Origin: a bacterium HR28
GTDB lineage: Bacteria; Chloroflexota; Chloroflexia; Thermomicrobiales; Thermomicrobiaceae
DNA length: 64,000 nucleotides
NCBI GenBank assembly: GCA_002898255.1
Contig: BEIE01000002.1
Coordinates: 558,001-622,000 of the forward strand
Reading direction: 5' to 3'
A program made the position numbers and the translations under genes. This document shows positions 39,672 through 42,617 of this stretch, one piece after another. A model generated the notes under the pieces. That model was not told where the DNA came from. It searched no databases and worked only from the letters and a program-made list of their open reading frames with translations. How positions within the stretch are numbered: position 1 is the first letter of the stretch; every line of letters starts with the position of its first letter.

Positions 39672-40883
39672 TCACGCTCTCCGTCCTGGGTAGATCTCGA
39701 GTGCGGCGGCGAGCAGGGATGCGGCGTGCTCGAGAACAGGCTCGGGCTGCACGAGGGCGAGACGGACAGCCCGATGTCCACAGCCAGGAGTAGCATAGAA
39801 GCCGCTCAGGGGAGCGACCATAACAGTTTCGCCACCGAGCGCGAAGTCGGTGAGAAGCCACGCGGCAAAGCGCTCTGCGTCATCAACGGGGAGTTCGGCG
39901 ACAAGGTAGAGTGCACCAGCTGGCGGGATAGGACGAACGCCGGGGATCTGCCGCAACGCGGCGAGCATCGTGTCACGACGCCGGCGGTAGGTTGTGACGA
40001 CCTCGGCGACGTAGGTCTCTGGCGCATCGAGCGCGGCAATGGCGGCGAGTTGTGCGACGAGGGGAAGCGAGAGACGAAGCTCGGCCAGCGATGCCGCCGC
40101 GGCGATGACGTCGCGATTTCGGCTAATCAGAGCGCCGATGCGAAGCCCGCACGCGTTGAAGCGCTTGGAAATACTGTCAATGACGATGGCATGGCCGTCG
40201 AGCCCGGGCATTTCCAGCGCGCTGGGCGCGCGTGTACCGCTGAAGACGAGCTCGCGGTATGTCTCGTCACTGTAGAAGAACAGGTTGTACTCGATCGCCA
40301 GCTCGGCGAGAGCCTGAAAGGCTGCGCGATCGTACAGTGTCCCAGTGGGATTAGAGGGACTACAGAGAAGAATGCCTCGCGTGCGCGGGGAAATGTGTGT
40401 ACGGATGGCCTCGGGGGAGATCGGACCATAGCGGTCAGGGCTGGGTACTGGCACGAGTTCGACGCCGGCGGCGGTCAGAATGCCTTGGTAGGGTGCATAG
40501 AACGGCTCGGGCACGAGCACCTGGTCGCCGGGATCTGTGGTGGCGAGGATGGCAAGCCAGAGTGCTTCGCTCGCCCCACCGGTCACGACGACCTCCTCCG
40601 GGCTGATCGACAGGCCAACCCGTTGGTAGTACCGCACCCAGGCAGCAATGAGTTCGGGAATCCCGCGTGACGGGGTATAGGTCGGTCGCTGACCGGCTGC
40701 CGCCGCGATTGCAGCACTGACGCCAGGTGGGGGAGGGAGATCGGGTTGGCCGATGTTGAGATGAATCACGCGGATACCGCGCGCTTTGGCTGCATCGGCG
40801 AGGGGAACAAGACCGCGAATCGGAGATGGCGGAATCGCTTGCGCGCGGGTCGAGACGTTCGGTGCGACCGTTCGCTGGACCAT
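39672..40883 (-). CDS. Fold-type I aminotransferase (class I/II)
   Basis: 403 residues. It has IHLNIGQPDLPPP, YTPSRGIPELI, CSPSNPTGTLYDRA, FYSDETYRELVFSG and the PLP lysine in DSISKRFNACGLRIGAL. These are hallmarks of the aspartate/aromatic aminotransferase group. ATG 40883 is chosen for GGGGAGG four bases upstream. The substrate is not predictable. It is divergent from the radical SAM selenoprotein with 260 bases between, and could share regulation. It is not linked to the T-box or lysX. Confidence 0.87.
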   Translation of the reverse strand: MVQRTVAPNVSTRAQAIPPSPIRGLVPLADAAKARGIRVIHLNIGQPDLPPPPGVSAAIAAAAGQRPTYTPSRGIPELIAAWVRYYQRVGLSISPEEVVVTGGASEALWLAILATTDPGDQVLVPEPFYAPYQGILTAAGVELVPVPSPDRYGPISPEAIRTHISPRTRGILLCSPSNPTGTLYDRAAFQALAELAIEYNLFFYSDETYRELVFSGTRAPSALEMPGLDGHAIVIDSISKRFNACGLRIGALISRNRDVIAAAASLAELRLSLPLVAQLAAIAALDAPETYVAEVVTTYRRRRDTMLAALRQIPGVRPIPPAGALYLVAELPVDDAERFAAWLLTDFALGGETVMVAPLSGFYATPGCGHRAVRLALVQPEPVLEHAASLLAAALEIYPGRRA

Positions 40884-41144
40884 TGTGCCTCCCCCCACCC
40901 AACGACACGTACGGCCCACCAGTTTAGCACTCGCGTGCGGCGTAGCGCGAGCGTCTTTTCGAGATACCGGAACGGCAGAGGGTAGAACACTCGTGAAATC
41001 AGGGAGAAGAGGAGCGCAGCAGCCACGTTGCCAGGTATTGGCGTACCATGGGCTGGGAGGGAGAGCTGGCAGAGAGCATCACCGGGGCAGCGCCGCGTGC
41101 TACGCTTGCAGACGATAGCGGTCTATCCCGCGGAGGGTGATCCG

Positions 41145-42617
41145 GTGAGTGTTCGAGCGGAGGTCGCGGACACGACAGGGCGCGACCTGCACGAGCCAGG
41201 TGCGATTCTCTTGCTGTCCTGCTACGAGCTCGGCCATCAGCCGCTGAGCCTCGCCATGCCGCTTGCCTACTTGCGAGAAGCGGGATACCAACCGCTGGCA
41301 ATTGACACGGCGGTGCAGGAGCTCCCGGCGGCAGCGATCAAGCAAGCGAGGCTGGTGGCCATCTCCGTCCCGATGCACACTGCCCTCCGTCTGGGTGTTG
41401 GACTTGGCGAGCGCATCCGGGCCGTGAATCCTGGGGTGCACCTCTGCTACTACGGCCTGTACGCCTGGTTAAACCGTGACTATCTCTTGCGGGAACTCGC
41501 CGACAGCGTGATCGGTGGTGAGATCGAGGTGCCCCTCTTAGGGCTTGCTCAGGCACTGGAGCGTGGTGGGCCGGTCACAGTGCCCGGGGTTGTGACGCGA
41601 GAGCAGTCGTCTGCGCCAGCGCTCGTCCGCGTCAGTTTTCCGGTTCCGGCTCGCGACGTTCTGCCACCACCGCGCCACTACGCGCATCTGATCATCGATG
41701 GCCAGGTCGTGCCGGCAGGATACACAGAAGCAACCCGTGGGTGTCATCATACCTGCGCACATTGCCCCGTCGTGCCGGTCTACCGTGGACGGTTCTTTGC
41801 CATCCCACGCCAGGTGGTCCTGGCGGATATCCGGCAGCAGGTGGCCACCGGTGTCCGGCACATCACCTTTGGTGATCCTGACTTCTTGAATGGGCCGACA
41901 CATAGCCTGCGCATCTGCCGTGCGTTGCACGAGGAGTTCCCTGATGTTACCTTTGATTTCACAACGCGGATCGAGCATATCGTCCGACATCGGGACCTGA
42001 TGCCGGAGTTCCGGCGGCTGGGCTGCGTTTTCGTCGTCTCGGCAGTAGAGCTCCTCAGCGAGCGAGCACTCAAGGCGATCCGGAAGGGCCACTCACGGGT
42101 AGACGTTCTTGAAGCGCTTCGCGTCTGCGACAACGCGGGCATCGCGCTACGGCCGTCGCTCTTGCCGTTCACGCCGTGGACAACCCTCGAGGACTACCTG
42201 GAGCTTCTGGAGTTCATTGAGGAAGAGGAGCTCATCGAGCACGTCGATCCGGTCCATCTTTCCATTCGCTTGCTCATTCCGCCCGGCTCGGCACTGCTGG
42301 AGGTCCCAGAACTTCGGCCCTACTTGGGACCGCTGGATGAGGCGAACTTCACCTATACCTGGCGGCATCCCGACCCGCGGATGGACGAGTTCCAGCAGGC
42401 TGTCGCCGAGCTTGCGGAGCGGGCGACGCGGGAGGGCTGGGATCCCTACACCACCTTTGCGGCGGTGCGCGCACTGGCCTGGGAGACTGCTGGAAAGCAG
42501 CCACCCAGTGAGCCGCCGCGGCGTCGACGAAAGCGACCGGCACCGCCGCGGCTCACCGAATCGTGGTTCTGCTGAGCGGAGCCGCTCGCGGACCCGGTGG
42601 GTCCCGCAGAATCCTAA
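41145..42617 (+). CDS. CUAEP-tail radical SAM selenoprotein (B12-binding type), UGA read as Sec
   Basis: Conceptual length 490 residues with selenocysteine at 477. The N-terminal part (about 20-140) resembles a cobalamin-binding-type domain. The radical SAM core has Cys200-x3-Cys204-x2-Cys207 (RGCHHTCAHC), then TFGDPDFLNG. Read conventionally it would stop at TGA 42573 after WFC. The bases continue in frame as TGC-TGA-GCG-GAG-CCG, that is Cys-Sec-Ala-Glu-Pro, the tail that names the CUAEP/CCAEP radical SAM family, then ten more residues to TAA 42615. A SECIS-like hairpin follows the UGA. GTG 41145 has GGAGG eight bases upstream. The reaction is unknown. Confidence 0.82.
42588..42607 (+). promoter_or_regulatory. 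Bacterial SECIS-like hairpin after the UGA codon
   Basis: GCGGACCC (42588-42595) pairs with GGGTCCCGC (42599-42607) with one bulged C, leaving a GGT loop. The loop begins 21 bases past the UGA and has G in its first two positions, in line with bacterial SECIS rules. Confidence 0.65.

What the first reader, a model, noticed from the sequence alone, without database searches (positions are those of the whole stretch)
42560..42617. UGA-encoded selenocysteine in a CUAEP tail of a radical SAM protein
The apparent stop TGA at 42573 follows TGC and is followed in frame by GCG GAG CCG, giving Cys-Sec-Ala-Glu-Pro and then ten more codons before TAA at 42615. The protein upstream is a radical SAM enzyme with a cobalamin-binding-type N-terminus, and CUAEP/CCAEP is the defining tail of one such family. 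A standard gene finder would truncate it before its key residues. What the Cys-Sec pair does is unknown.
Basis: partly seen in the sequence, partly recalled or inferred. Interest (0 to 1): 0.85.

Follow-up and report, generated by a model that had tools for sequence, protein, structure and literature searches.

The report
Selenocysteine-tailed radical SAM enzyme (CUAEP)
A heat-loving bacterium reads one UGA 'stop' codon near the end of an enzyme gene as the rare amino acid selenocysteine; the enzyme family is already named in databases, but here it is tied to a kin enzyme that builds an arsenic antibiotic and to a set of partner genes, which makes its unknown job testable.

Summary
The UGA at 42573-42575 lies in frame in ...WFC-UGA-AEP..., followed by ten more codons and TAA at 42615-42617. 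It is almost certainly selenocysteine. In 57 of 80 homologous loci (several phyla) UGA sits at exactly this column; in the other 23 it is TGC/TGT. A hairpin 20 nt downstream fits the bacterial SECIS model and covaries in UGA members, but is mostly lost in Cys members. The genome holds selA, selB, selC and selD. The family is not new: NCBIfam NF040546 'CUAEP/CCAEP-tail radical SAM (seleno)protein' scores 766 bits, cut-off 500, and the T. roseum orthologue bears that name, though its CDS stops at the UGA. New here: (1) the Cys-Sec pair aligns with the Cys-Cys of the RCCLKC tail of ArsL, the arsinothricin enzyme; (2) the gene adjoins or co-occurs with a YggX-type protein, an ATP-grasp amino-acid ligase and a formyltransferase. 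Best mechanism (inferred, ~0.4): an ArsL-like enzyme whose flexible Cys-Sec tail holds a thiophilic substrate for a SAM-derived radical. Substrate unknown.

The parts
41145..42617 (+). CUAEP-tail radical SAM selenoprotein gene (GTG start predicted; 490 aa with Sec477); mechanical ORF to the UGA is 41028-42575
   Evidence: ORF, read-through translation, NF040546 766.5 bits, PF04055; start inferred from GGAGGG spacing and family HMM start
41742..41765 (+). Radical SAM motif CxxxCxxC (C180, C184, C187 in alignment A3 numbering), ligands of the [4Fe-4S] cluster
   Evidence: invariant in 49 members and in three ArsL/RCCLKC proteins
42570..42584 (+). Cys-Sec-Ala-Glu-Pro motif (TGC TGA GCG GAG CCG)
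42573..42575 (+). UGA codon read as selenocysteine
   Evidence: UGA in 57 and TGC/TGT in 23 of 80 homologous loci at this column; sel genes in genome
42590..42604 (+). bSECIS hairpin GGACCC-GGU-GGGUCC, loop 20 nt after the UGA, G at the loop start
   Evidence: -9.1 kcal/mol for this stem-loop; covariation in homologues; mostly lost in Cys homologues
42615..42617 (+). True stop codon TAA
42631..43941 (-). Convergent MFS transporter, neighbour shared by Thermomicrobium loci only
   Evidence: PF07690; recurs in 5 loci incl. window; also in T. roseum
39672..40919 (-). Divergent PLP aminotransferase upstream, lineage-specific neighbour
   Evidence: PRK07568 488.6 bits, PF00155; also next to the T. 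roseum orthologue

Best explanation
SHOWN by comparative sequence: the UGA at 42573 is a selenocysteine codon decoded with a SECIS hairpin just downstream, in a member of the known CUAEP/CCAEP radical SAM family; many relatives use Cys at the same place. INFERRED (about 0.4): the enzyme works like ArsL. A radical SAM [4Fe-4S] cluster bound by C180/C184/C187 cleaves SAM to a carbon radical (in ArsL the 3-amino-3-carboxypropyl group), and the adjacent Cys-Sec pair on a flexible C-terminal tail swings in to hold a thiophilic substrate (As(III) or a comparable soft element or thiol compound) and present it to that radical. The product would be an unusual amino acid that an ATP-grasp amino-acid ligase joins to another amino acid and a formyltransferase formylates, while the YggX-type protein supplies iron to, or shields, the Fe-S cluster. 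Sec instead of Cys would give a lower pKa and tighter binding of soft metal(loid)s.
For: Sec: UGA/Cys alternation at one column in 57/23 loci; covarying hairpin, 86.3% of cells paired vs 73.2% shuffled, 65 double-sided changes vs 23.8 +/- 7.2, slid controls 6-13; bSECIS criteria met in 45/56 UGA members but 2/23 Cys members and 8% of all TGAs in the window; at least 7 U/C switches on the tree; sel genes complete. ArsL kinship: NF040542 326 bits, 32-37% identity to RCCLKC proteins, CU aligned with CC of RCCLKC, 54 residues invariant in both groups. ArsL makes hydroxyarsinothricin from As(III) (PMC8552651). Module: YggX upstream in 28 loci, ATP-grasp nearby in 32, formyltransferase in 26; YggX co-occurs (65 of 92 CUAEP genomes, 10 of 308 others, p 7e-42, not corrected for phylogeny); within one family of 23 genomes the two gene sets coincide exactly (9 and 9). 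In the window's own genome the three partners sit together on another contig.
Against: No direct evidence of Se in the protein. No arsenic genes recur beside CUAEP genes, unlike the ArsL clusters. The score against the ArsL model is below its cut-off (326 vs 450). The module's ATP-grasp is only about 25% identical to the one in ArsL clusters, so the parallel may be convergent. In Thermomicrobium the enzyme gene is apart from the module, and 27 CUAEP genomes lack YggX. The tail is weakly modelled (mean pLDDT 71 for 451-460, 35 for 461-470) and no coordinates were available to measure its reach.
Confidence: 0.85

Rival explanations
1. The Cys-Sec pair is a redox couple, as in the C-terminal Cys-Sec of mammalian thioredoxin reductase: it forms a selenenylsulfide and delivers electrons or a hydrogen atom to the reaction or resets the enzyme.
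For: Vicinal Cys-Sec on a flexible C-terminal tail; Cys replaces Sec freely in homologues, usual for redox Sec; YggX (oxidative damage protection) partner.
Against: The nearest kin with a matching tandem Cys (RCCLKC) is an enzyme acting on As(III), where a substrate-holding role is more natural (own knowledge of Yao et al. 2024, cited in PMC12159101).
Confidence: 0.3
2. The Cys and Sec are ligands of an iron-sulfur cluster (an auxiliary cluster, or capping of the unique iron of the radical SAM cluster in a resting state).
For: Tandem cysteines as Fe-S ligands are discussed for Dph1-Dph2 (PMC11048331).
Against: Only two further ligands in the tail; free Sec/Cys exchange is unusual for cluster ligands; no other family-wide Cys cluster among invariant residues.
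Confidence: 0.15
3. The UGA is an ordinary stop and the protein ends ...WFC; the downstream AEP codons are remnants.
For: RefSeq ends the T. roseum protein there.
Against: UGA aligned with Cys codons and synonymous conservation after it, covarying hairpin, complete Sec machinery.
Confidence: 0.02
4. The YggX, ATP-grasp and formyltransferase genes are only frequent neighbours in Chloroflexota and have no functional tie to the enzyme.
For: In Planctomycetota and Nitrospirota a DUF169 gene follows instead; 27 CUAEP genomes lack YggX; the co-occurrence statistic ignores phylogeny.
Against: Co-occurrence within one family of 23 genomes is exact, and it holds in genomes where the genes are not adjacent.
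Confidence: 0.25

Closest known systems
NCBIfam NF040546 rSAM_CUAEP, CUAEP/CCAEP-tail radical SAM (seleno)protein
   Same: Scores 766.5 bits over a cut-off of 500 across the full model including the tail
   Different: Nothing; the window's protein is a plain member
ArsL, arsinothricin biosynthesis radical SAM protein (NF040542, RCCLKC tail)
   Same: Homologous over about 400 residues, same CxxxCxxC, tandem Cys at the C-terminus aligned with Cys-Sec; both kinds of locus can hold an ATP-grasp protein
   Different: Below the ArsL cut-off, about 50-residue insert before the tail, AEP in place of LKC, no arsM/arsQ beside it, Sec form exists
AprD4 radical SAM diol dehydratase (PDB 6fd2)
   Same: Best fold match, TM 0.70, with an N-terminal cobalamin-type Rossmann domain
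   Different: 20% identity; known chemistry on an aminoglycoside; no Cys-Sec tail known
Other radical SAM selenoproteins (TIGR04167, NF045646 TrsS; listed in PMC13188914)
   Same: Radical SAM proteins with Sec
   Different: Different families and motifs; CUAEP/NF040546 is not named in that review's text

Membership tests
NF040546 CUAEP/CCAEP radical SAM family | Score above the curated cut-off (500 bits) | tested here: met
   766.5 bits, model 1-467 of 468
NF040546 CUAEP/CCAEP radical SAM family | C-terminal C-[U/C]-A-E-P tail | tested here: met
   TGC TGA GCG GAG CCG at 42570-42584
Bacterial selenoprotein | In-frame UGA aligned with Cys in homologues | tested here: met
   57 UGA, 23 TGC/TGT in 80 loci
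Bacterial selenoprotein | bSECIS: stem 4-16 bp, loop 3-9 nt with G in first two places, 16-37 nt from UGA, MFE at most -7.5 | tested here: met
   6 bp, loop GGU, 20 nt, -9.1 kcal/mol; criteria from PMC13188914; covariation
Bacterial selenoprotein | selA, selB, selC, selD in the genome | tested here: met
Bacterial selenoprotein | Se present in the protein | not testable with these tools
   needs mass spectrometry or 75Se labelling
ArsL (NF040542) | Score above cut-off (450 bits) | tested here: not met
   326.1 bits
ArsL (NF040542) | RCCLKC tail | tested here: not met
   tail is CUAEP; only the tandem Cys/Sec aligns
ArsL (NF040542) | arsM/arsQ or other ars genes adjacent | tested here: not met
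   no recurrent ars genes in 80 loci; none next to the window gene
ArsL (NF040542) | ACP transfer to As(III) | not testable with these tools
   needs enzyme assay
Cobalamin-dependent radical SAM | B12-binding domain by sequence | tested here: not met
   no Pfam B12-binding hit; DxHxxG only in 3 of 80 rows, outside the conserved part
Cobalamin-dependent radical SAM | N-terminal B12-type Rossmann fold | tested here: met
   AF2 model pLDDT 92; fold matches AprD4, OxsB, TsrM

The most novel reading that the evidence does not exclude
A selenocysteine-dependent, ArsL-like radical SAM enzyme, spread over many bacterial phyla, that together with an ATP-grasp ligase, a formyltransferase and a YggX protein makes an undescribed formylated dipeptide containing an organo-arsenic (or other soft-element) amino acid.
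Probability: 0.2. Interest if true: 0.85.

Novelty: new member of a known kind. Interest (0 to 1): 0.5.

Why it matters
The gene is truncated before its key residue even in a record that names the family, so annotation and expression studies would use a protein without its motif. The family is large (486 candidate stretches encoding relatives in one scan) and I found no paper naming it in the held library. The ArsL tail match and the partner module turn 'unknown function' into a defined assay: which soft substrate, which SAM fragment, and what the ligase and formyltransferase do to the product.

Tried and rejected
Rfam gathering scan of the window found no SECIS family; bacterial SECIS elements are too varied for that. 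The single-sequence fold was only weakly better than shuffles (z -1.53), so I used covariation instead. SelB presence does not separate UGA from Cys genomes, because selB is common in the phylum (306 of 400 over cut-off). Window neighbours (aminotransferase, MFS) were considered as pathway genes, but they are neighbours only in Thermomicrobium. Orthology of the ATP-grasp protein with that of ArsL clusters was tested and not supported (about 25% identity). Papers on CUAEP or RCCLKC: none in the library; two NCBI selenoprotein papers (PMC9879109, PMC12013261) are not held. A first model from six sequences was poor (pLDDT 72) and was replaced by one from 49.

Full report
Observation. The sequence at 42560-42617 is as described: TGC (42570) TGA (42573) GCG GAG CCG, ten further codons, TAA (42615). 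The frame upstream is open from 41028; I place the start at GTG 41145 behind GGAGGG, giving 490 residues with Sec at 477.

The UGA is selenocysteine. A search of bacterial and archaeal genomes with an alignment of six members returned 80 loci (486 relatives in all), from Chloroflexota/Thermomicrobiota, Planctomycetota, Nitrospirota, Methylomirabilota/Rokubacteria, Gemmatimonadota, Acidobacteriota and others. All 80 carry W-F-C-[U/C]-A-E-P; 57 have UGA at the column (one, L072, is cut off just after it) and 23 have TGC or TGT. The search patterns included the peptide WFCCAEP, so the tail's presence is partly selected for; a second pattern (SCYELGHQ) was independent of it, and a family HMM search of 400 whole genomes, which does not depend on the tail, gives the same picture: 92 over cut-off, most with one in-frame TGA, the rest with none. 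The codons after the UGA vary at third positions while Ala-Glu-Pro is kept. The protein tree needs at least seven changes between the two states.

SECIS. All UGA members keep a stem-loop at fixed spacing with an invariant G in the loop (52 of 52 distinct sequences). On 51 distinct sequences, 86.3% of cells pair against 73.2% in shuffles; 65 cells change on both sides against 23.8 +/- 7.2; sliding the partner by one to three columns drops this to 6-13. Cys members pair only 3.3 of 7 positions on average against 6.1. Under the published bSECIS criteria (PMC13188914) 45 of 56 UGA members pass, 2 of 23 Cys members, and 8% of all TGAs in this GC-rich window. So a hairpin alone is weak evidence; its conservation, covariation and loss are strong. 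A few Cys members (Thermogemmatispora L060, L061, L068) retain hairpin remnants, as expected of recent Sec-to-Cys changes.

Machinery. The window's genome has selC (73.1 bits, tRNA-SeC by ARAGORN), selB, selA (548.6 bits) and selD, which itself has an in-frame TGA.

Family. The protein scores 766.5 bits against NF040546 (cut-off 500) and next best 326 bits against NF040542, ArsL (cut-off 450). The T. roseum orthologue is already named 'CUAEP/CCAEP-tail radical SAM protein', but its CDS ends at the UGA. The kind is therefore known; this is a further member. An AlphaFold model (pLDDT 92) matches AprD4 best (TM 0.70), then cobalamin radical SAM enzymes. The N-terminal domain has that fold, but the sequence evidence for cobalamin binding is absent.

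What it probably does. [quoted passage not shown] PMC12159101). From my own knowledge of Yao et al. 2024 (JACS, cited in PMC12159101; not held here), ArsL's RCCLKC tail is needed for arsenite binding. Aligned with three RCCLKC proteins, the Cys-Sec pair falls on their Cys-Cys, and 54 residues invariant in a sample of this family are identical in all three. That is the ground for a substrate-holding tail. It is inference; a redox role is the main rival.

Partners. In 28 loci the gene upstream is a YggX-type protein (NF003817, PF04362), in 26 a formyltransferase lies divergent beyond it, and in 32 an ATP-grasp protein with an L-amino-acid ligase C-terminal domain (PF18603) lies nearby; in Nitrospirota and Planctomycetota a DUF169 gene follows. 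In Thermomicrobium the enzyme gene stands apart, but the genome has ATP-grasp, YggX and formyltransferase side by side on contig C7. Over 400 genomes of the phylum, 65 of 92 with the enzyme have YggX, against 10 of 308 without (p 7e-42 by Fisher, uncorrected for phylogeny). Within family f3 (23 genomes, two genera with mixed state) the sets coincide exactly, 9 and 9. ArsL-type clusters on Alicyclobacillus and Pantoea plasmids also hold an ATP-grasp protein and an MFS transporter, but that ATP-grasp is only about 25% identical.

Verdict. Recoded UGA: about 0.97. Family member: about 0.99. ArsL-like substrate-holding mechanism: about 0.4. Module functionally tied to the enzyme: about 0.75. The claim as found is right but already catalogued; the interest lies in the tail homology and the partner genes.

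Noticed in passing
G000:C7 (L127:8455-11084): ATP-grasp, YggX-type and formyltransferase genes side by side, the same trio that flanks CUAEP genes in other Chloroflexota; in this genome far from the enzyme gene.
   Followed up: partly
L058, L060, L061, L066, L068 tails: Thermogemmatispora members, which use Cys instead of Sec, have a longer tail with an extra Cys-Cys near the end (for example ...SSDCCGVGH), possibly making up for the lost Sec.
   Followed up: no
L009:3053-4422 (G000:C4): An integrase-like gene follows directly on selC (tRNA-Sec), suggesting an integrated element at that tRNA.
   Followed up: no
L014 (G000:C1:1068420-1069352): selD of the same genome has one in-frame TGA, so SelD is probably a selenoprotein too.
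   Followed up: no
L139:5989-7425: The T. roseum DSM 5159 CDS WP_012643191.1 carries the CUAEP family name but is ended at the UGA, so the record lacks the motif it is named for.
   Followed up: yes
G340:C4:135145-136533 (L040): One Ktedonobacteria-type member shows an in-frame TAG shortly after the Sec TGA (WFC-TGA-AEPA-TAG), a very short tail.
   Followed up: no
L046 and L049; G174:C2 and C35: Thermomicrobium sp. CFH 73360 carries the gene twice on different scaffolds; duplication or assembly artefact.
   Followed up: no
L141, L142: RCCLKC-tail (ArsL-type) clusters on Alicyclobacillus and Pantoea plasmids include an ATP-grasp protein, an MFS transporter and a GTP-binding protein, more than the three-gene arsQML cluster first described.
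   Followed up: partly
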